Shown here piece by piece: positions 4,935 through 33,260 of a stretch of DNA of 35,187 nt (position 1 is its first letter; each line of letters opens with the position of its first letter). The notes beneath the pieces are model-generated. The model was not told where the DNA came from. It was given only the letters and a program-made list of their open reading frames with translations, and ran no database searches. The position numbers and the translations under genes are program-made. Source of the DNA: Spirogloea muscicola (Eukaryota; Streptophyta; Zygnematophyceae; Spirogloeales; Spirogloeaceae); the NCBI GenBank assembly GCA_009602725.1, contig WELB01000024.1, positions 16,479 through 51,665 on the forward strand, given 5' to 3'.

Positions 4935-7900
4935 TTAGCCAAGACCTACATAAACTCTCTCGTGTGGAGGAGGGGCGCGAGGGTTGCTGGTCTCAATGTC
5001 CACGTGGAGGACCTCAGGTACGAGCCCTTTTATCTCTTTTTCTAGCCGATCCACTTCAGATCCAAGAGCAGTGACTACTTCCTCTCCTGAAGTTGCCACG
5101 TCATGTAGTGCTATCAGATCAATACAGGATTTAACTCTGTTAAAGAATTGGTACAAATAAAAGAAATACGCAAGAATGGATTGGAAGTCTCGCTCAGCCT
5201 ACTTGGTAACTCCTTGTGACGGCGACAAAGAGGATGGGAGCAATAGAGGTTGATGCTTGCAAGCCCAGGCCCCAGATTTGCAACTCACCATAATGGGCCA
5301 TGACCTGATCAAGTTCTTCGTCCCCTGACTTCAGTACTGCACTCCGCACCTGCAGATACTACGATGCGCCGTCATCAGATTGACATTGGAGCCATCCTTC
5401 CGATGGTCTTGGCAAAGACCCCAGACCCTTGTGCGAAGCTAACAACATATGACATCGTTAAAGACTGACCTGGTTATACAGCACGTCCTTGCCAACACGC
5501 CGTAGATGTCGTTGCACTATGATGATGCCATTGAAATCTGCCATACACAGTCCAATATAGTACAATCATCAAACAGTGGACCTATCCATTGAGGGGTGGT
5601 GCACAGCTTGCCAGCCGATGAGGCATTGCCGGCTAGAGTTGTAAAGTCGAGCACCTGCATTTACCTATTTCAGCCTTGAACCTATACGTCCCAGGACCCA
5701 TAACCTCGCTTTTGCAGTCCCAGACATTGTCAACAACCTGAATACATTGCAGAATCATAGAGGCATTACATTGACTGTGACATGTGGTGCATTGGCTACA
5801 GCTTCAGATGTCTTTAATAAAAGATGGGCAAAGAGCTGACACAGACACTAAGTACAAGTACCCCTGGCATGCAGACATCATGGAAGTCCTACCGGATCCT
5901 TCCTCAAGAGCGCAATGATTTTCCGGATATCTGATGGCTCCATAGACTGGCCAAGCAGCGCACGGCGATTCCTTTGAATGAGGAATGCAGCAACCTGCCC
6001 AACCACAGGGGCGCAGGTAAATTTTAGCAGGTTGTAATTGCTGAAAACTCTAGGCTCTTCAGTAGACCGAAAAAGACAAGGCAGCAGTGCCACTTGTCAT
6101 TCATTTGCGTCTATCAGTGGACTCACTGCTCCTAGGAGGCCTCCAATGGCAATGGAGCCAACTCCATCCCAGACTGGGTTTCCAGTGAGTTCCACAGCCA
6201 AGAGGGATGCTGCTGCAATGACGCAACCTGTGACAGCGGCTCCATCCTGGCAAGCAGCGCCGGGTAAGAGTTCACCTCATGCCTTAACAGAAATTTACTC
6301 CTCTCTTAATCAAGTAGGTGAGCTTTGAAGCAGACTCTATGAGCCTTCACATTGGACGCCCAGCACTTCACGCCTCCTCGCATTGCACACCTACATATGA
6401 CATGGTAACAATGGACCTGGTGCACAGATCTTACCTCCATCATGACGGCCACTGCAGCAGGGTCACCACTTCGCCAGAGGTAGTCTCGGAAGGTCATGCC
6501 CTCAGCCTTTGCGCCAGCCTGCACTGCTCTGAATGCCATATGTAGAGATGCTCCTGCACAATCAATTTCGTGCAACAGGATTGGGCCGCAGAAGCTGAAG
6601 AAGGTTGTCAAGATGGACATTGGTCCATACATTACAGTCAATGGCTGGTTGTCGCATACCTTCCATAAGCACTGAGCCTCCAAGAACCAAAGCTGCCATG
6701 TACATGTTCATAACTGGCTGCAAGAAGAGCAGCGCCTTAGGGACAACTTCCCAAAGAGAGATATGCGCATTGACGATCTGCAACTGAGTGGCTAGCCAAC
6801 CTGCTGCATCATGTCGCTCTCAAGTACCAGCAAGAATCTAATGACAAGGGTGACGTAACTTGCACACACTAACCTCTGGATTCCAAAGACTATGAAGCCC
6901 GTGCATGATGGTAACGCCTGAGCCTAAGCAGAAGATGCCTGTTGCGGACACCAATGCCCAGATGAAGCGTTCCTTTGAATAGCCATACCTGTTGCAAGAT
7001 ATCTGCTTCAGAAAGCAAGCAGGGCAACAGCTTGCTGGCCATAGCAGGAAACTTTGACGACGTTGTTGCTAGCTGTGTGCAAGACCAAGAAAGAGGAAAA
7101 GCTTGGCACGCAGCTACATAAAGGACAGCGTTTTGCTCGACTCTGCTCATCAGCTGTCAATCAGGAGCAATACTTTCTGGCAACGTAAGTGGTCGAAGCA
7201 ATGCCAGCCTTACGGATGCTCAAGGTCGGGAGCTCGATTGGAGCTGACAAGTCCGTACCACAGAAGAGACTGTGCAAGGTAAAGAGAAAAGCATTAATAT
7301 GAACAATGGGCCTTGAACTTCTTAGCAAGCCAATGACTTCAAGGCTCGCATTGTATGCATTACTGATGCATTTATGACACACCTGGTTGGCAACATCAGC
7401 AAGAGAGTGGACTGCCTCAGCAGCCATGACGCTGCTCTGTGTTGCCAACCAAACGCCCGCTTTCAAGCTGAAGACAAGGAAGTTGCACCAAAGGGCAACC
7501 ACCACTGCACGCTGGCTGTAGGAGGATGCATGTGACACCAGGAGGTCAGCAACATCACGGTGCGTGGACCCAATCTCATACCGTGGAAGACGGTCCAGCA
7601 TTGCATCCGATTAAGCAGATTCACAGCAGATTGTGCTGGAGGTGACACCTGTGGTCCTTGGCAACCATTCGGTGAGGATGCCTCTCTGAGTGGCGAGTGT
7701 CAGCAGTTGAGCCCTTGACCACCGTGCTGTACGCTGCACTCGAGCTGAGAAGATATTCAAGGGTGCGTTGATTCTCAGATAGACAGTGCGAGCCGCACTC
7801 TCCTGGCGCTCCAATATAGATCTCCAAGAATGCCATTCCTCCCCCGCTCGAGTTGCAAGTCATTCTTGCTCGGCTCCCACTGCCAGTCACTCCATAGCTA

Positions 7901-13455: not shown

Positions 13456-16400
13456 CTATGCTGACAAGGACAGCCAGGGCCTTCTCCATTGGTAGCCCTC
13501 CATTCTACCAGCGCAGTGCAAGCAGCAACTTTTCTTTAAGTACCACAGGGCATGTGGCTGGCTGGTGATTAACAAGCTTGCATTATCCGTCTGATTAGTC
13601 AACCTAAGTTCCGTTAGCAAGATTCTCAAGGCATGAGCAGGTTCTTGTTGCCTGTGGTTATTCATGACTGTATATTGATATTAATGCACTTGCTACTGCT
13701 TTCAGTAAGGTGTTTCCAAGCAGTCGAGACTTGACCATGTCTTAATCACCTCGTATGGGTAACAGTACCTGAACGTGCCCAAGAGGCATCCTCGAGCAAT
13801 ATCTTTGATGTGTAAAGCAGTCGGGCAGGGCCTTCTGTCAAAGCCGTCAGCCTCCACATTCACTGTCTATGGCAGCAGCAAAGGTTACCTCATCCATAAT
13901 CAAGCTGTCTTTCTACTTGACAAAGCTGACCTGAATGTTTGGCCAGCTTCACATCCAAAACCCGCTCAGACCAGTCTACTACTTTGGTATGTCGGACGAC
14001 TTGCCTCCTTATGCTTGCAGGAAACTCAAATATCTGATCAAAGTCTCAAGCTTATGTGAAGGCATTGCACTGCTGCCACTGCGCATGTACAGTAGCCACT
14101 GTATTACCGAGAAACTGATCCATTCCTGCTCGATCCAGGCTCACAGAGTAAGCAAATGTAGGCTTTCTCTGAAAAGTCCTGCGAGCTAGAGAGACCAAGG
14201 GCCAACAGCGCTGCCTTTATCATCAAGTACAAGGCCTCGTGCTTATTTAGCGCCCTATTAGAACACCATGCAGTGGTAATTGCTGCAGGAGCAGTCATGG
14301 CCAGGAGGAGGTTCTGTTCGGCAGAAGCAACCAAAACCATCCTGCGATGGGCATCTCCCTCCTCCATCGCAATAGCTGCAACAGTCTGAGTCGCATGTTG
14401 GATCACCGCAGAGGCTGTTGACCGGCTTGTAGCGGTCGAGCTTGCAGAATCCCTTGCTGGAGAAAGATTTGGCACCTTGTCAATACTGCTGGCTGTAACT
14501 TGTGCAGAGTGGTATTCAGAATTGACAGCTTGACATTGCGACTATTAATGAGCATCAATGGGCTCGAACGTCAACCAAGATCAGCAGATGCGGATATTCA
14601 TAACTTGAGGTGAGCCCATTGCAGATAGCAAGTATCAGATGTATGTGGTTGCTAAAGATTGGCATGCAAGCATGCCAAGACCTCCTTCCATACCTGCACT
14701 TCCCGCTGACGCAATCGGGGTGGTACTCTGTGTTAATTGCAGTGGTATTGCAGGAAGTGCCATCTGCCAACAGCTTCAACGTGCACTTGCCATTCCTGTA
14801 AAATTGACCTCCAGCCAACTAGTGTCAGTTGTTCACAACTGGACCCTGATCAAGTGCACAATCTAGCAAGGCAGAGGTGCAGCGAGCGAGAATCAAGGAA
14901 GATTCATGATCTTGGCTGGAAGACATGATTGTCTTTAAATTGGAAATAGCATGATACCCATACAGCTCACAAGACCTGATTCCTACATGCAGGAAGCGGT
15001 GGCACAGCCTTTGTGAGCAGCAAAAGGGTATCCAGGGTCCATGGCACGTGTGCAACTAGCACCATCTGAAAGCGGGGCAATCTTGGCACATGTGCCATTC
15101 CTGAGGGATGATCACCTTGAGCAAGTGGTGAACAACTGCTGCTGTGGAGGAATAATCAGATCAAAGCGCTCAAAGCAGGTGGCACTTTCTGCTAGTACAC
15201 AGGCACATACGACTGGTCTGCATACAAGCCCAAGCATTTGCATGATTGTCACCAACCTCGGTGGGAAGGGAGGATGTACCTGCACTTCTGAGTGCTGCAA
15301 AAATCGTTGCCAGAAATGTAGTCACAGGATGTATTAGCTGTTGCAGTGTAGTTGTAGAGGCAATGTCCAGCAGCACTGCCGACATCATATGTCATTGATT
15401 TTAGTGCCTGGGAAGAGCAAAAGCCTATGGAAGGATGCATGCTTTGAAGTCCATGAGTACATAGCCCATGAATACTGTAGATGCAGCGTCATTTGTAACC
15501 TTATGATCAGCAATTGCAGTCTTACTCGCAAGTCCCTTTCAACTTGCACTGGAAGTTCTGGTAGAAGTCATCATGCCGAACATATTCACATGAAGAACCA
15601 GCGGTACGGAAGCCACTGAGTGTACAGGACCCATTTCTGGGCCACCAAGCCAGCAACTAAAATCACGAGCATGCATAGCACTTACTCCTTGATGCTGAAT
15701 GCCAGATGACTTCAGAGCACATCTTCTGTATGGATTTGAGGTCCAACATTCTAAGGTCTGTGTCCCGCCAAGCTTAATTCACCAGATAAGTGGGTGCTCA
15801 CGCTTGGCAGACAGCGTTATAGCAACCCGGGTTGAGAGTTGGATCCTCCACGAAGCTACATGCTGAAATGTAGGGGTTGAGGGGACCTCGCACGCATGAA
15901 CCATTCGTGCTGCGATATGCAAGAACACCACACTAAGTACATAGCATAGGTTGCATGTATGCTTCACTGAGCATGTCATTGCTCAGAGTACTCGTGTTGC
16001 TATAAGTGCATGTAATCTATAGCACGGCTGGTAACCCCGGGTACAAGATGGACTTGGTTGGCAGTCATACTTGCAAATATAGTTGTTACAAGTCTCAACA
16101 GACAGCTCCTCTTCATAGCATAAATTCCCGCCTGGATTTCCAGGAACTGGAATGCACTTGCCATGGCTGCCATAACCAACTCAGTGAGAGATTTATCAAG
16201 CTGCATGCTGTCACGTCAAACACTTATACACAAGTAAAAGCTCAACGTCCTGTATGAGTCCTGTATTGAGCCCTGTATGAGCACAACTTCATTTTGGGTC
16301 TACTACCAGTTTAGAGTCCCAAGGTCCAGTAAGAAGAGGTTCTCACGAGTCACAAGTTGCGGTATTGCAGAAGAAATCTGCCCCTGTGGAAGAGACATAG

Positions 16401-19400
16401 CAATTTTTGGCCTCGTAGAGCTCTGTCTGGCAGGTATTGTTGCTGCCAGCGCAGATGTCACAAGTAGCGCCAGTCAGATGTATTGCCAGGCTCATAGGAG
16501 CAGTGCAGCTGCATACTGCAGAACAGAAGCAGAGGAGCTTACACACAGTGGTTGTAGCCGCAGTTGGGATCTGGGTAGCCCATGCCGTACTCACAAGCCG
16601 CGAAGTCATCGCCAATGCAATCTGTGGAGGAGGTTGGTGACAAATACTGCCTGCACTCTTAGATAGTGCTTTAGCGGAGTCTCTCCAGAGCACAACATGC
16701 TCCTTGCACTATCTAAGTTCCACTCAGCATTTGTTGCTCAATTGCACGGGTGATGCTTACAACGAGTATTTTTGTAGAAGGAGCCGCACTCTTGTGCTGA
16801 TTTCTGACCAAAAGAGTTGGCTCCAAAGCAATTCAGAAGGAAACGTGTATTGACGTGTGGAGCTGTGATGAGCGGTTGTGGACCATTCAGGTAGTTCGAG
16901 GATACATCGAGTATGTTCAATCCTGTCTGGTTGACGAGCTTCTTGATTGCAGCAGGGAAGGGCCCACTGAGGCTGTTCATTGACAGATTACTGCACCACA
17001 GGAAGAGGTGATGTCATTAGCGAATGTTGTCAACTTTGATGAAGTGATAAGAGGTGAAGCGTACAGGCGTGAGCAAGGTCTAGCCAGGTGAAGCAATGGA
17101 AGGGTGCCCAATTGTATGGTGAAAGCATGCTCCTGGCTACTCAAGGGACACCGATGATGCAGTTGTGCACGACAAGCATTCAACACAACCCAAAGATTGT
17201 ACACGAAGCAATTGAAGCCAGAGCATGTAAGCTGCTCGTGATGGATACGAGATAAGCGTTGTCCCTCACAGTTTCTTTAGCGCAGTCAGGTCACCGAACT
17301 TTGCAGGAATAGGGCCTGCCAAATTGTTATGGTACAAGTACCTGGAGACAGGGCTTCTCCTTGATTACCAGTACAAGTTTTGAGAACCCCTGCAAACGAG
17401 TATCTGACTACTACTCGAGTATTGGTCTTATGCTGCATCTATGGCATCCTGCTTGTATTCAATATGACCATCAAGGCAATTCTGCAGCATGTGAAGGCAA
17501 CACATAGACATGGCGGCACTGGGCAAGCCCCTTGGCATTTTTTCATGGGTGTACAATCATACAGACAATCAGCGTACATGATCCCAAGTTTTCTTAGGCT
17601 GCCCAGGTTGGTGGGGATGCTACCAGTCAGCATGTTCATGGAAAGGTCCCTGCATGCACGCACTAAAATGTTCAGCTTGAGTACTGCAAAAAGACACGCC
17701 TTCAAATTCAAGAAGAGGTTCACATTATTACTTTCATACCATACCATGCACACTGAGCACTGTGAATGTTATTACTGTTCCCGGTGCCATGATTGTTACA
17801 AAGGGACTGCAAGCCTTCCCACATAAAGCAAATTCAAAGCTTGTCAAGCGTAAGAGAGCTAGAGAGAGAGAATGTACAAGACAGTAAGATTGACGATTCT
17901 GCCAATGCCATTGGTGATGCTGCCGGTGAGCTTGTTTCTTGCAATTTGTCTGTGCAGATATAATCAGTACTGCAACGGTGTTACTCACAGAAGGCTGGTG
18001 AGTTGGGAACCAACTCAATCTGCAATGGTAATGTCAGCACTAGAACAATGCATTCTCTGACATCCTAAATTACAAATATTGTAGGTGCACTGACAGCTTC
18101 GAGAGATGTGTCAATTTCTCCAGCCCAGAGGGAATGAGTCCTGTGAACCGGTTGTTGTCAACAATGCTGCTCAGAAGAGGTACGATTAACAGTGCGCTCA
18201 GTCAATCAATCCTTTCGTAGACAATGGCGATGACCGACAGCTTGTCTGAGTATTAACAGGGGATGACTCCATGCTGGGCGATGATATGCTCTTTGACTGG
18301 TACACGATGCACATCACGGATTGATTTGCAGCCATCATACTATGACCAGGTTATTATTATACCCACGCCTTCGTCTAACTGCATTCTAACATTATGTGAC
18401 GTTATTGTAGGGTGTCATAGGATAGTCACGGGCGGAAATTACAAGATAACAAGAGATGAGAGGTTGTTGATCGCTGTTGGTATGCTCCCTTCCATCTGGT
18501 TGTTGGCAAGATGACTTCATGCACCAGTTGCAGCCACTTGAGGAATGTCTCAGCACTCTTGATTGTTTCAAAAGTGGGGTTGATTGCTGAAGCATGCAGA
18601 ACATCTTTTGTTGACATATTATTCTGAGATTGCCATCTTCCTTGAGCACTCACATGAGTTCCAGCTTGGCTAAGCGACCAATCGTCAGAGGTATGGATCC
18701 TGTGAGCATGTTGTTATCAACATTCCTGCATGGACGTCGTCAACTGCTTAAATGGATATCGACATGTATAAGGAGCTACTTGTACTAAAATATTGGAAAT
18801 GAGAAGCTTGAATATGCTTCAGTCAAGGCACTTGAAATACTTATGCAGTGAGAAGGACTAAATGGCTAGATGGTGCACACTTGAGAAACAAGTAGTAGTT
18901 ATGTGGTTGTGATACCTACAGCAGGACAAGGTTGAGGAGATTCCCAATAGTGGTTGGAAGAGGTCCCTTCAGCAGGTTGTCCTGCAGGTGTCTGTGTTAT
19001 CGTACCACGGAGGCATCGTAAGTCTGCCATCCGCAAGGCTTCGGACTTTCTGATTTAATTTGTCATTTCTACAAGCTTTCGACCCAGCACTGACCACTGC
19101 TGAAGCCCCTCAGGTGGGAGGACATCACTAGTGAGAAGAGACACAACACAGTGACAACAATCCAGTCAAGTTGACCTATTTGTAATGTGAGTATGTATTG
19201 ACAACTGGCCCGAAATGAAATTACTTTCACACATTCCTGGCCCAGGTAGTCCTCGGAGCATACAGTGTGACAAGATTGCTCAGGTTGCCAACACTGGGAG
19301 CAATGGTCCCATTCAACTTCAGGCCTGCTAACTCCCTGCAGACAGGCAACAAGCAGAATTGAACCTACAGGGTGTCACACAGATGAACGTCAATCAGCCC

Positions 19401-20417
19401 TGCCATCAAGCTAGACTTGGTTGAAACACCAGAGGAGCCGCAATGGCGGCCCACATGTCACCAAGGTCAACAAAGCTGGCTTTGCAGCTTACAAGATTGA
19501 TACCCTGTTTGTGGAATCGCAGGAGACTCCGAGCCAGCCAGAGCATGGGTTGGACCCCGTCCATGAAGAAAGAAGTGGAGGGTTCAGGAATTTTGCTTTG
19601 AGGTCCAGAAGTACGCCAGCTGCATATCTTTGACAGAAAGTAACCCTATCAGAGAAGCAACCCAGTGGTACAAGCCCTTGGTCTCCGAACAAGCAAGCCT
19701 GGTGTGGCGTCATGTACGAGCGGGCCAACTCACAGTCTGGATTGACTGGCAGAAGGAGTCGCTGTCTTGATTCCTGGCCTTGCACTGCTGGTCCCTGGTG
19801 CCACAAAAAGTGAGCCAGCACTCAGCCAGCCGTAGCATGACAAGTGACACCAGCCTTGTGAGGTAGTAATTGCTTCCGATGCAACTAGAACAGAGATACA
19901 TCTGATGTTTTATGTTGAGAGCCACCAGCCGCAGAGGTGGATGTACTACAGAAAGTGAGGCTTAAGCAGGTAGGAGTGCTAAATCACAGTAAAGCAAAGG
20001 TTCGATATGTACAAGAAGGGTGCAAGCAGAGAGACTGAGATTGACGTGTTTGCTAACAGACTTTGCTTGGACATGATTGGTGCAAACCAGTGACTCAAGA
20101 CGCCAACCACTTGATGTGACGCCTTCAGCATCTGCAAAGAACTGGAACAACAAAGTCACATTGAATCCTGTGCTACAATGCTCGCTGCATAAAGACGTGG
20201 ATGTGCAGGAAAGAGCACGAAGAAGTGCGAGTCAAGGAGTGCGGGCAAGCACATATGTGGACTTGTGTATCTCTCTCTATCTGTCTCTCTGTTTTTCCCC
20301 TCTTTGCGTGCAATATAGGCGCTTGCTCGCACTCCTTGCGAGAAATACACACAGAGGGATAGAGAGAGAGAGAAAGGGGGGGAGAGAGGGAGAGAGAGAG
20401 AGACAGAGAGAGAGAGA

Positions 20418-20505
<88 letters not shown>

Positions 20506-20863
20506 NGCCAGGGCCCGGCTGGGCGGCCCGCGCTCGGGCGTGCGGTAGCAGTGCTGCTCCCGGCGGCTCCAGCACGCCGCGTACTCGCTGTCGGCCCCCG
20601 GCGAAGCCTCCCGCGGGCGGCGCGCCCACGCCTGCCACTCGGGCGACTCCACGCCGCCGCTGGCCTCGCAGTCTGCGCCAACACGGCGGCGGGGCCGTCA
20701 GCTGCGGAGCTCCAGGGCCAAGGCGGTGCGGCGACGGCCGAGGATTACCGGCTAGATGGGGCTCGAGGTCGGCGTCGGCATCTGCATCGGGAGCTGCGTA
20801 GGGCTCCGGATCGCCGGCGGCGGCGGCGGCGGCGAGGAGCGCGGCGAGCAGCAGCGGCGCCAT
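13456..20863 (-). CDS. Secreted LRR protein with a cysteine-rich module array
   Basis: No exact family is recognised. Exon 1 (20863-20749) encodes a hydrophobic signal peptide, MAPLLLAALLAAAAAAG. It splices in phase to 20672-about 20507, a Trp/Cys-containing segment with EYAACWSRREQHCYRTPERG. A plant-type LRR N-cap follows (about 19627-19493: LLDLKAKFLNP, SSWTGSNPCSGWLGVSCDS). Eight exons of exactly 72 nt then each encode one 24-residue LRR: 19335-19264, 18991-18920, 18725-18654, 18514-18443, 18166-18095, 17949-17878, 17649-17578, 17341-17270. The ninth LRR plus cap is 16990-16761. Cysteine-rich exons: 16621-16543, 16508-16347, 16166-about 16037, 15862-15802, 15615-15526, 15375-15280, 15100-14987, 14795-14694, 14456-14267, then 14178-14108, 13834-13769 and 13651-13456 (stop). 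Phases agree throughout. No kinase domain or clear transmembrane helix was found, so a wall or extracellular protein is more likely than a receptor kinase. The last three exons and the link across the 20.36-20.51 kb microsatellite are less certain. Confidence 0.75.
14267..16621 (-). repeat. Tandem cysteine-rich module exons
   Basis: Nine consecutive exons each encode a segment with about 3-14 cysteines. Several share the pattern [NH]-G-[KT]-C-x5-L-x-[DN]-G-x-[SP]-C-x(n)-C-x(2-4)-C: HGKCIPVPGNPGGNLC, NGTCAKIAPLSDGASC and NGKCTLKLLADGTSC. Others share a C-x-DP/NxxC-Y-N-xx-C ending (EYGMGYPDPNCGYNHC; VEDPTLNPGCYNAVC). The last of these is the longest and richest, with CDSDCCSYCDGGGRCPSQDG and GCFCRTEPPPGHDCSCSNYH. 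The spacing recalls disulfide-bonded extracellular modules, but no named Pfam domain is claimed. Confidence 0.7.
16761..19335 (-). repeat. Nine-unit LRR exon array
   Basis: Nine leucine-rich repeats of the plant-specific LxGxIP type, for example NNMLTGSIPLTIGRLAKLEL, NRFTGLIPSGLEKLTHLSKL and MNMLTGSIPTNLGSLRKLGI. Units 1-8 each fill one exon of exactly 72 nt, starting after the second codon base and ending the same way, so units can be gained or lost without breaking the frame. Introns between units are about 190-320 bases. Confidence 0.85.
20358..20505. repeat. (GA)n microsatellite ending in an ambiguous base
   Basis: An imperfect then perfect AG/GA dinucleotide run of about 150 bases. It is followed by an N at 20506 and then GC-rich coding sequence of exon 2 of the LRR gene. 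The repeat is probably intronic, because reading it as protein gives only Ser-Leu or Glu-Arg dipeptides. The N suggests an unresolved or collapsed repeat, so the donor of exon 2 may be missing here. Confidence 0.9.
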
Positions 20864-29881: not shown

Positions 29882-30721
29882 CTCGCCGCCTGCCCGGGCT
29901 GCTCCTGAGCTTGCCAGGAGCTTCCCCCCTCAGCCGAGAGGCACGGCTAGGGCCCTAAGCAGCCAGCACCACGGGAGGGCAGGGCAAGGCCCCTCCCCCC
30001 GGGGGCTTGCTCCGAGCGCGCCCTAATTTCGGCTATGGCGGGTCTAGGCCCACCCGCCATAGCCGAAATTAGGGCGGCGCGTGCGCTCCATCCGCGCGTC
30101 ATCTCCGAGGCCGGACTTCCAAAACCCGGGCGGATATCGCAGGGCCCGGGAAGCCCCACTCCACGTGGACCGAGCCCTCCTCTGACGGTACGGGTTGCTG
30201 TCGGGAAGCCGCGGGGAGCGCTTTGACCGCTGATGGGGCCCCCGGCAGCATGGCCTCCTCGCAGAGGGAGCGTCCACGTCAACGACCACGTGGCTGGTAG
30301 TAGCCGTCCTCCTCCCCTGACCAGCCCCATCAAGCTTTGGAGTTGACGCTTTTCAATCAAGCCAGCCCGGGGTTGAAGTCCCTCGTCGGGGGCCCCTTTC
30401 CCTTTGGCCGCGGCGATCAGCAGAGCACAGGGCCTGCCGCTAACGTTAATGGAAATCAGTTTTAGCCTTTGCGCTAACAGCCACTCACTCACTTCAGAGA
30501 GACTTCACTCCACAGTGAGTGATCGAACACCGACCGCCACCGCCGCCGCCGCCGCCGCCTTCGTCGCCGCCGCAACCGCCGCCGGCTGGGTCAGCGCAGT
30601 GGCAGCCGCCGCCGCGGTGGGCGACGCCAGCGCGAGCTCCGGCGGCGTGGCGCCGAGCCGCTCCCGCTGCCGGATCTGCCGTCGCACAGCCGGCGGCTGC
30701 TGCCAGCGGCCGACCAGGACC
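29882..30721. promoter_or_regulatory. Divergent promoter region, HDAC / reductase
   Basis: About 840 GC-rich bases between the HDAC start (minus) and the reductase start (plus), compatible with a bidirectional promoter. It contains the perfect inverted repeat at 30019-30076. The reductase frame stays open upstream to an ATG at 30404, but the Ala-rich stretch encoded there looks like translated 5' UTR. Confidence 0.4.
30019..30076. repeat. Perfect 25-bp inverted repeat, 8-nt loop
   Basis: Left arm 30019-30043 is the exact reverse complement of right arm 30052-30076; the spacer 30044-30051 reads CTAGGCCC. The arms contain CCTAATTTCGGCTATGGC and its complement. Outside the perfect stem, GAGCG (30014-30018) and CGCTC (30083-30087) could extend it after a small asymmetric bulge. 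Confidence 0.95.
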
Positions 30722-33260
30722 ATGGCAGCTCTGGAGCTGGAGCTGGGCTTCCTGGGAGCCGGCATCATGGGCCTCGGCATGATGCGCAACCTGCTCAAGG
30801 CTGGCCACAAGGTCAAGGTGTGGAACCGCAGCCCGGCGAAGGTGAGCATCCCGCACTCAACCTGGAAGTGCAAGTATCAGCATTGTCGCCTCAGCCAGGA
30901 CCCCATTGAAAAGACCATTAAATAGACCACGTCAAAACTATAGCGCGTCGTTTGCCAGGCCTATCTGTGAGATACAGACCTCTTATGCAGTTGCTCGATG
31001 TAGACGTGCTAATGGAGGCGAAACGCCTCGAAGGGCATGATACAGCTTGGCTCTGTGTGGTCTGGCTGGTGGCACAGTGCACTGAACAGCTTTGCTTGTA
31101 ACTTTAAGCCTTGCCGTGGAGGCTGCTCTGACGCTTTGACTGCCGCTGTCATCCCGTTCTGTTGATAACAGGTCGACGCGTTGGTGGAGGAGGGTGCTTC
31201 AAGGGGGCACACGCCTGCAGAGGTGGTGAAGGCTTGTGACATTACAATCGCAATGTTAGCTGACCCGGCAGTGGCGCTCGAGGTTAGTTATATTGACTTT
31301 ACTTTCAGCAATACCTTACAAGAACCTGGGACTGTATTGCAACAGGTTCATCTCGTTACTTTTGCACACACTCCTTGTGAGGGGTTCTCAGGGAGGAGGC
31401 TTGTCTCATTATTGATCCTAAACATACGGCTCTTGAAGCTTTCCATTTGAGAAGAGTACACGACATAGATCCTGCTAGCCAAGTGCTCGATCAGGCCTCA
31501 AGGGCAGTGACAACGTTGAGTCTTGTAGCCTATCTCTGAGCAGACGCTGTTGGCATGAGCTTGCAAGACAGGTAGCACTTGGAGAAGGTGGGGTGATTGA
31601 GGGCATGTCAGAGGGCAAGAGCTATGTGGATATGTCCACCGTCGACGCCGGCACATCAATGAAGATTGGACAAGTGCGTTCAAGCCCAGTCCACTCGCTT
31701 TTCCCAGTACTTGTACTTGTCATGTACCACCATAGGAGGCTGCATTCGTGCCCAGAAGTCGATGAAACTACCAGAGCTTCTGCGTCAACAAAGACCTAGA
31801 CTGAGAAGAGATTGCCTTAATCACTACAGAGTTCTAGCCTAGCTTGAGCTGGGAGGTCTACAAGTAGTAGTGTGGCATTGGCCGTGGACCGCATGCAGTC
31901 TCCCTCCGTCTCTACACTGGTGTAGATGCCATCGACTCTGCGAGTCTTTCTGAGATTGTTCGGGGTATGACTGGGCCTGCATATGTATCAGGCTGTTGTG
32001 GAGAAGGGTGGAAGGTTCCTTGAGGCCCCAGTCTCAGGGAGCAAGAAGCCAGCCGAGGATGGCACACTCATCATTCTTGCTGCAGGCAACGAGGTGGGAT
32101 CATCAGAGCATTTTCTGCTGGACCTTGACCCCCACAACAGCTCTGCTTGAAAGTATGACACAGCTGCCAGGAGATGACAATGATTGCCCATTCAGTCTGC
32201 TTCACTCCTTGTACACAATGCAATTCCTATTGATGTATGATCATGTGTGGGCTTGATGCATGCAGGCACTATTCAAGGCTGTGGCGCCAGCCTTTGATGC
32301 CATGGGTAAGAGGTCGTTCTTTCTGGGCGACCTTGGTAATGGAGCACGCATGAAGCTGGTGGTAAATATGATTATGGGCAGGTCAGTCCATCTTCTCTGA
32401 GCACCTCCTCTTCACCTTGCTCGTAATTGATTGTGGTCTATTCTATGCCATGGAAAAGGGCATACATCTCTGAACAGCTTTGGCAGTACTTGCTTTGTGG
32501 TCAGCATGGTGGCCTCCTTGTCAGAGGGGCTTGCTCTCTGTGGCAAGGCTGGCATCAGTCAGCAAACGCTCCTGGAGGTCTTGGTAAGACTCAAGCGCTG
32601 AGTAGCTTACGGCCAGGCTGATGCTTCATAGCTTGTTTCAATATTCTGTATCTACGTACTGTGAAGCAGAGTTTGCCTGAGTTGTTAGGTGTTCTGTGGG
32701 TCATTACATTGCGGCATGCAGGTAGAAATCCCTTGAATCCATTGGAGCTGGCTATTGAAAGTCATTGAATAACCGAGTACCACTTTAGAGACAATTTCCT
32801 GCAAAAGATAAAGGGTCAAATGTTCATTATTAGTCTGACCAATGCTTTGTGGATATGAGCAGGACCTTGGTGCGATGAGTAATGGGCTATTCAAGCTAAA
32901 GGGCGCATCCATTTTGCAAGGCAACTTTCCTCCTGCGTTCCCTTTGAAACACCAACAGAAGGACATGAGATTGGCATTGGCAGTTGGAGACGAATGCAAC
33001 CAGCCAATGCCAATTGCGGCAGCTGCTAATGAGGTTAGCCCAGCAGATTCTGCACTGAGCGCTTATTCCTGGGAATTCCTCATTCCTGATTGACCATTGT
33101 GTTGCCTCTCAGATTTCTGCTCGTGAAAGTTTGGCCCTCTGTTTCACAAGGAGTTGACTTGCACATTGTACGGCAATTACTGCAGGCATACAAGCGAGCA
33201 AAGGGAATGGGCTTTTCTGATGAAGATTTTGCAGCTGTCTTTAAGGCTATCCAGCAATAA
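30722..33260 (+). CDS. GLYR1: Glyoxylate/succinic semialdehyde reductase
   Basis: An NADPH-dependent beta-hydroxyacid dehydrogenase family enzyme that reduces glyoxylate to glycolate and succinic semialdehyde to gamma-hydroxybutyrate, detoxifying aldehydes under stress. Exons: 30722-30841, 31172-31282, 31572-31673, 31992-32093, 32266-32381, 32505-32583, 32863-33033, 33186-33260. All phases agree, giving 291 residues, near the 289 of the Arabidopsis cytosolic enzyme. The Rossmann motif [17 protein letters not shown] starts around residue 8. Further landmarks are [12 protein letters not shown], the substrate loop [19 protein letters not shown], the catalytic-lysine block [15 protein letters not shown], and [15 protein letters not shown] near the C-terminus. 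ATG 30722 sits in a good context (GACCATGG) and gives the compact form. An upstream in-frame ATG at 30404 would add about 106 Ala/Arg-rich residues and could represent an organelle-targeted form. Confidence 0.95.

What the first reader, a model, noticed from the sequence alone, without database searches (positions are those of the whole stretch)
13456..20863. LRR protein fused to a cysteine-module array, built almost entirely from phase-2 exons
Eight LRR exons are exactly 72 nt and phase 2-2, and most of the downstream cysteine-rich exons are also phase 2-2. The same symmetrical phase across two unrelated module types makes the gene a ready substrate for exon duplication and shuffling. I know of plant LRR proteins with one-exon-per-repeat structure, but not of this LRR plus Cys-array combination. 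It lacks a recognisable kinase, so it may be a secreted adhesion, wall or recognition protein of an alga.
Basis: partly seen in the sequence, partly recalled or inferred. Interest (0 to 1): 0.75.

Follow-up and report, generated by a model that had tools for sequence, protein, structure and literature searches.

The report
Algal leucine-repeat protein with cysteine array
A green alga from the group closest to land plants has a family of plant-type leucine-rich-repeat proteins joined to a row of small cysteine modules that was found in no other organism searched; nearly every repeat and module sits on its own frame-neutral exon, and while that exon pattern is ordinary, the protein combination looks new.

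Summary
The gene is on the minus strand (14258 to about 20167); the deposited gene is SM000024S07729, by name Spirogloea muscicola (prefix recalled). Three same-genome copies fix the exon chain: eight LRR exons of exactly 72 nt, phase 2-2; a ninth LRR plus cap (2-1); Cys1 (1-2); seven further 4-Cys exons (2-2); a terminal 12-Cys exon. 17 of 18 introns are phase 2; the one phase-1 intron is the LRR/Cys junction. dN/dS is 0.16-0.32. It is one gene: the same order recurs at 14 more loci. The 72-nt phase-2 LRR exon is ordinary (rice LRR kinases). The Cys module has no Pfam or PDB relative, and two searches of 5.8 billion proteins found it only in this genome. Corrections: the deposited first exon (to 20863) most likely belongs to a gap-broken xyloglucan-fucosyltransferase-like gene, so no signal peptide is shown; the deposited model misreads Cys3-Cys5. 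Shuffling is weakly supported: Cys-module number looks steady within each subfamily (8 or 6). Likely role, inferred: secreted recognition or matrix protein.

The parts
14258..14456 (-). Terminal exon: 12-Cys domain (KGFCKLDRY...CMVF) and stop TAA, phase 2 to end, 199 nt
   Evidence: deposited models P0001 and P0002 have the same exon
14694..14795 (-). Cys8 exon, 102 nt, phase 2-2
14987..15100 (-). Cys7 exon, 114 nt, phase 2-2
15280..15375 (-). Cys6 exon, 96 nt, phase 2-2; the C3 copy has a 1-nt insertion
15526..15636 (-). Cys5 exon, 111 nt, phase 2-2 (the deposited window model starts it at 15615)
   Evidence: P0001 and P0003 use the full exon
15802..15909 (-). Cys4 exon, 108 nt, phase 2-2 (other frame in the deposited window model)
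   Evidence: P0001 and P0003
16071..16166 (-). Cys3 exon, 96 nt, phase 2-2 (other frame in the deposited window model)
   Evidence: P0001 and P0003
16347..16442 (-). Cys2 exon, 96 nt, phase 2-2
16543..16621 (-). Cys1 exon, 79 nt, phase 1-2
16761..16990 (-). LRR9 plus C-terminal cap (NCF...QKSAQEC), 230 nt, phase 2-1
17270..17341 (-). LRR8 exon, 72 nt, phase 2-2
17578..17649 (-). LRR7 exon, 72 nt, phase 2-2
17878..17949 (-). LRR6 exon, 72 nt, phase 2-2
18095..18166 (-). LRR5 exon, 72 nt, phase 2-2
18443..18514 (-). LRR4 exon, 72 nt, phase 2-2
18654..18725 (-). LRR3 exon, 72 nt, phase 2-2; its acceptor reads AC in the C3 copy
18920..18991 (-). LRR2 exon, 72 nt, phase 2-2
19264..19335 (-). LRR1 exon, 72 nt, phase 2-2
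19493..19619 (-). N-cap exon of plant LRRNT type (LSSWTGSNPCSGWLGVSC), 127 nt, phase 1-2
19734..19794 (-). Probable upstream coding exon GPAVQGQESRQRLLLPVNPD, phase 0-1
   Evidence: deposited models P0002 and P0003; 3 of 4 variable columns at third codon positions in three copies
20088..20167 (-). Weakly supported upstream exon (FNVTLL...RLESL); the start of the LRR gene is unresolved
   Evidence: deposited models P0002 and P0003; C100 lacks the acceptor and has an 8-nt and a 6-nt gap here
20340..20506 (.). (GA)n-rich run and one-base N: assembly gap
20507..20863 (-). 5' fragment of a xyloglucan-fucosyltransferase-like gene, most likely wrongly joined to the LRR gene in the deposited model

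Best explanation
A single gene, one of at least 17 related loci in the genome of the zygnematophyte alga Spirogloea muscicola, encodes an extracellular LRR protein. A plant-type N-cap and nine plant-type LRRs form a horseshoe that binds a ligand. A C-cap leads into eight 4-Cys modules (C-x7-11-C-x8-15-C-x4-5-C) and a 12-Cys terminal domain. If the cysteines pair, this makes a stiff disulfide-braced rod or anchor that holds the LRR head in the wall or mucilage, where it serves recognition or adhesion. Both arrays grew by duplication of symmetrical phase-2 exons and meet at the only phase-1 intron. Shown: exon chain, one gene, purifying selection, the family, no known Cys family. Inferred: species name, LRR fold (from family and a fair model), secretion, disulfides, rod shape, location, ligand, duplication history.
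For: Exon chain kept in three copies and in deposited model P0001. LRR part: LRR_1, LRR_14, LRR_8, LRR_4 in Pfam; the best of 300 distinct PDB sequences at E<=0.001 (60 shown) are plant LRR receptor ectodomains; after the gene's own copies the listed best 120 of 3141 proteins are mostly land-plant LRR receptor kinases and receptor-like proteins, with a few bacterial or unnamed ones. 44 Cys in the 336-residue Cys part; 13 N-glycosylation sequons and no 19-residue hydropathy window above 1.21 in the 643 residues from the N-cap on. dN/dS 0.16-0.21 (LRR) and 0.25-0.32 (Cys) over three pairs. LRR, cap and Cys exons in the same order at 14 of 14 further loci. Modules A5-A8 pair one to one with B3-B6 (z 11.7-17.1).
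Against: No signal peptide can be assigned: deposited exon 1 most likely belongs to another gene and the true start is unresolved. Pfam's LRRNT_2 was not reported for my chain, only precomputed for P0003. AlphaFold gives no confident fold for the Cys array (10-residue means 21-49 in P0001; 32-78, most under 60, in P0005). No expression data seen. The C3 copy is damaged (acceptor AC at LRR3, 1-nt insertion in Cys6). Modules A1-A4 and B1-B2 do not pair clearly, so the duplication history of half the array is unknown.
Confidence: 0.6

Rival explanations
1. A soluble recognition protein of the RLP or PGIP kind: the LRR face binds microbial or wall fragments and the Cys array recruits a partner kinase or inhibits an enzyme.
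For: Nearest sequences are mostly plant receptors of immunity and development; PGIP and LRX appear in the PDB list. Tandem clusters of the family on C20 and C99, as in many recognition gene families (recalled).
Against: LRR dN/dS of 0.16-0.21 between the copies shows constraint, not diversification, and is lower than in the Cys part; site-wise selection was not tested.
Confidence: 0.3
2. Two adjacent genes, an LRR gene and a Cys-rich gene, joined by prediction.
For: The junction intron is the only phase-1 intron of the chain; two mapped deposited relatives carry Cys exons without LRR exons (P0009, P0010).
Against: Frame and splice sites across the junction are kept in 3 of 3 copies, and LRR, cap and Cys exons follow each other at 14 of 14 other loci, including those of P0009 and P0010.
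Confidence: 0.02
3. A decaying family with no present function.
For: The C3 copy has two lesions; C20:1083k and C274 match only part of the exons, and split matches at C20:1116k suggest broken frames.
Against: Window and C100 copies are open over the whole chain, with dN/dS of 0.21 (LRR) and 0.32 (Cys) between them.
Confidence: 0.08

Closest known systems
Plant LRR receptor kinases with one exon per LRR (rice LRR-kinases, PMC3050792, abstract and passages)
   Same: 72-nt exons, phase-2 introns that split the first Leu of xxLxLxx; here the nine split residues are L, L, L, I, F, L, L, M, L; plant-type N-cap and LxGxIP-like repeats
   Different: No kinase and no membrane span from the N-cap on; instead a 4-Cys module array with its own phase-2 exons
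Brown-algal ROCO genes with shuffled LRR exons (PMC11378527, passages)
   Same: 72-bp phase-2 LRR exons, proposed exon shuffling
   Different: ROC-COR GTPase domains; positive selection and several splice forms are reported there, whereas overall dN/dS is low here and splice forms could not be tested
Tetrahymena 90-bp phase-2 LRR exon arrays (PMC6564038, passages)
   Same: Extreme phase-2 bias of an LRR exon array
   Different: 90-bp exons, thousands of genes, highly variable exon number; a ciliate
Leucine-rich repeat extensins (LRX) and polygalacturonase inhibitors (6qxp, 8ikw)
   Same: Extracellular plant LRR proteins without a kinase; LRX joins an LRR head to a wall-binding tail (recalled)
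   Different: The LRX tail is proline-rich extensin and PGIP has no such tail (recalled); here a Cys array

Membership tests
Plant-type LRR ectodomain | LRRs of the LxxLxLxxNxLxGxIPxx type | tested here: met
   Pfam LRR families, plant ectodomains as best PDB relatives
Plant-type LRR ectodomain | LRRNT cap (LSSW...CxWxGVxC) | tested here: met
   By motif: in 3 A copies and at 6 of 10 B stretches searched, a seventh match there looking spurious; the Pfam profile LRRNT_2 was reported for P0003 only and not for my chain
One-exon-per-LRR gene structure | 72-nt exons, phase-2 introns at the first Leu of xxLxLxx | tested here: met
   against PMC3050792
LRR receptor kinase | membrane span plus kinase domain | tested here: not met
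   no kinase in Pfam, no hydrophobic span
LRR receptor-like protein (RLP) | C-terminal membrane span after the LRRs | tested here: not met
   the array ends in a stop after the 12-Cys domain
LRX | extensin-like proline-rich tail | tested here: not met
   tail is Cys-rich, 44 Cys in 336 residues
Known Cys-rich domain families | match to a curated profile or solved structure | tested here: not met
   Pfam at E<=10: only DHOase at 0.021, below its cut-off; PDB at E<=1: one match at 0.26; NCBIfam at E<=0.1: none for P0010 and only LRR matches for P0001 and P0005
Secreted protein | N-terminal signal peptide | tested here: inconclusive
   the candidate exon 1 probably belongs to a fucosyltransferase-like gene; true start not found
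Exon-shuffled array | module number varies by whole symmetrical exons | tested here: inconclusive
   8 against 6 Cys modules between subfamilies; steady within them where fully matched

The most novel reading that the evidence does not exclude
An orphan extracellular 4-Cys repeat arose in the Spirogloea lineage, spread as phase-2 exons, and was joined to an ancestral plant LRR head through one phase-1 junction, giving a kinase-less receptor or matrix family of at least 17 loci in an early-branching zygnematophyte (branching order recalled): a natural case of two unrelated symmetrical-exon arrays fused into one modular surface protein.
Probability: 0.35. Interest if true: 0.65.

Novelty: new variant of a known kind. 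Interest (0 to 1): 0.45.

Why it matters
[quoted passage not shown] This family couples a plant-type LRR head, without a kinase, to a Cys-module array found only in this genome by the two searches made. It is a compact system to test how symmetrical exons let two repeat types share one gene, and adds an unrecorded module to the likely surface proteins of an alga. It also corrects the deposited gene model at the 5' end and at Cys3-Cys5.

Tried and rejected
Rejected: a 152-nt Cys2 exon starting near 16498 (acceptor lost in C100 and C3, 1-nt gap in C100; the 96-nt exon fits all three copies). Rejected: frame DQQCKARNQD for the exon at 19794 (used in P0001), since three of four variable columns fall on third positions of the other frame; weak, four columns only. 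Rejected: the Cys-only deposited relatives as separate genes. Led nowhere: Rfam and tRNA scans, AlphaFold of the Cys array, a signal-peptide search upstream of the LRRNT (several chance-like candidates). P0004 could not be mapped exactly (12 of 13 mapped); its deposited span covers two loci. The regex count of exons is rough: it finds 7 of the 8 LRR exons in the window, one with a wrong length, and I use it only as a caution: it lists six 4-Cys candidates at C20:1083k and C274 and as few as two at C20:1116k. Exon matching with P0005 cannot see modules unlike those of P0005; it also left stray single matches (C99:75062, C99:87755, C20:1083330, C99:3956 and 4224) that I did not follow. No fold search was run, the Cys models being of low confidence. 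Papers: search listings only (four gene names) found none. No title or abstract start listed or 61 names this family, but I did not open those papers for it. The genome paper of the species is recalled and was not seen.

Full report
Where it lies. The window is C24:16479-51665 of a 153.1-Mb, 471-contig genome. A deposited protein from the same place is named SM000024S07729, locus s24:30736-37341 minus, which equals window 14258-20863. I read the names as Spirogloea muscicola (Zygnematophyceae, lineage); the meaning of the SM prefix is recalled. A genome triplication is reported for this species (PMC7994812, passages), and the window from at least 9.7 to 20.3 kb has two syntenic copies, on C100 and C3, with a break at 12.8-13.7 kb in C100.

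Exon chain. I aligned the three copies and looked for splice sites and open frames kept in all. The chain has 19 exons from the N-cap to the stop: LRRNT (127 nt, 1-2), LRR1-LRR8 (72 nt each, 2-2), LRR9 with cap (230 nt, 2-1), Cys1 (79 nt, 1-2), Cys2-Cys8 (96, 96, 108, 111, 96, 114, 102 nt, 2-2) and a terminal exon (199 nt). Donors are GT in 54 of 54 places and acceptors AG in 56 of 57; the miss is LRR3 in C3. C3 also has a 1-nt insertion in Cys6. Exon identity is 0.920-0.928 and intron identity 0.816-0.830; gaps fill 1 of 1935 exon columns and 272 of 3527 intron columns. dN/dS is 0.16-0.21 in the LRR part and 0.25-0.32 in the Cys part over the three pairs.

Comparison with deposited models. 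Twelve of 13 deposited relatives could be mapped exactly to the DNA. P0001 (C100) agrees with my chain exon for exon from the LRRNT on. P0002 (the window gene) agrees except that it reads 16207-15783 in other frames and starts Cys5 late, at 15615, which loses Cys3, Cys4 and the start of Cys5; P0001 and P0003 keep them. P0003 (C3) leaves out LRR3 and Cys6, the two damaged exons, and stays in frame since both are symmetrical; it then runs past the Cys8 donor and lacks the terminal domain. These are a predictor's choices; I saw no transcript.

The 5' end. The deposited exon 1 (20863) is GC-rich and followed by an open frame in a compatible phase that runs into a one-base N at 20506 and a (GA)n run. 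The same peptide, typed from C3, is found at C105 (93 of 93 identical), C59 (91%) and C210 (93% over 75 residues). A xyloglucan fucosyltransferase match lies in the same open frame at C105 (PF03254, E 2.5e-8) and in an overlapping frame of the same stretch at C59 (E 3e-15), both above the cut-off (frames). So exon 1 most likely belongs to a fucosyltransferase-like gene broken by the gap, and the LRR gene starts below 20506. Its true start was not found, hence a signal peptide is not shown.

What the LRR part is. Pfam gives LRR_1, LRR_14, LRR_8 and LRR_4. The best solved relatives by sequence are plant LRR receptor ectodomains (MIK2, GSO1, FLS2, ERL1). After the gene's own copies, the listed best 120 of 3141 hits (7978 candidates scored) are mostly land-plant receptor kinases and receptor-like proteins, with a few bacterial and unnamed ones. 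In the model of P0001, 16 of the 24 ten-residue blocks from 81 to 320 have means of 70 or more. Introns split the first residue of xLxLxxN: L, L, L, I, F, L, L, M, L. Rice LRR kinases have just this: 72-nt exons, phase 2, the same Leu (PMC3050792). Brown-algal ROCO genes have 72-bp phase-2 LRR exons (PMC11378527) and Tetrahymena has 90-bp ones (PMC6564038).

What the Cys part is. Eight modules each have four Cys with spacings of 7-11, 8-15 and 4-5; the last exon has 12 (C100 copy). Pfam at E<=10 gives one sub-threshold match (DHOase, 0.021) and the PDB at E<=1 gives one at 0.26; NCBIfam has nothing for it. Two searches of 5.77 billion proteins gave 13 different proteins in all, every one with an SM name (8, 9, 4 shared). 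That search needs shared 5-residue words, so distant relatives can be missed. The fold is not predicted with confidence.

The family. The Cys part hits 81 places in the genome (weakest E 7.4), on C24, C100, C3, C99, C20, C274 and C453 only. Beyond the three copies (subfamily A), I read 14 loci, on C99 (6), C20 (6), C274 (1) and C453 (1), with exons of P0005, one of them P0005's own locus. All 14 have LRR, cap and Cys exons in the same order; 12 of 14 match all six Cys exons and the terminal one; C20:1083k and C274 lack Cys1 and Cys3 at this threshold. So LRR and Cys parts form one gene, and the Cys-only deposited models are incomplete. Loci on C20 and C99 lie in roughly parallel order and orientation, as expected of duplicated segments. 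Subfamily A has eight Cys modules and B six: A5-A8 and the terminal domain pair one to one with B3-B6 and its terminal domain (z 11.7-17.1, and 7.2), while A1-A4 and B1-B2 do not pair clearly. LRR exons of deposited B models are 48-93 nt, all phase 2-2. In the seven models counted (from the LRR exons on, first exons left out) each has exactly one phase-1 intron, at the LRR/Cys junction, all others being phase 2; the five other mapped models were not counted, namely the misread window model and four short or odd ones (P0009, P0010, P0012, P0013), of which P0012 and P0013 have further phase-1 introns.

Reading. The two symmetrical arrays are real and joined through a 2-1 and a 1-2 exon. Whole-exon gain or loss is the simplest account of 8 against 6 modules, but the number is steady where arrays are fully matched, so shuffling is a capacity more than a habit here. 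The likely product is an extracellular LRR protein on a disulfide-braced tail, for recognition or adhesion in wall or mucilage. That rests on family knowledge, Cys content (44 of 336) and 13 sequons, not on a test.

Noticed in passing
window 20507-20863, C3:1056776-1057250, C105, C59, C210: Copies of a GC-rich 5' part of a xyloglucan-fucosyltransferase-like gene; the C105 peptide is 93 of 93 residues identical to that of C3, so a recent duplication or an assembly fault is possible.
   Followed up: partly
window 16207-15615: Deposited model SM000024S07729 misses Cys3, Cys4 and the start of Cys5.
   Followed up: yes
C3:1050600-1056600: Copy with a lost acceptor at LRR3 and a 1-nt insertion in Cys6, both symmetrical exons.
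   Followed up: yes
window 8585 and 20506: Single N bases that look like assembly gaps; the one at 20506 lies beside a long (GA)n run.
   Followed up: partly
window 7164-7610 (-): Open frame with a cation efflux family match just above cut-off (PF01545).
   Followed up: no
window 30377-30922 (+): Open frame with an NAD-binding domain of 6-phosphogluconate dehydrogenase type (PF03446).
   Followed up: no
C99 4-88 kb and C20 1036-1123 kb: Tandem clusters of six family loci each, in roughly the same order and orientation.
   Followed up: partly
window 21.2-21.6 kb and C3:1057.5-1061.0 kb: GC-rich stretch repeated many times in both orientations near the fucosyltransferase-like block.
   Followed up: no
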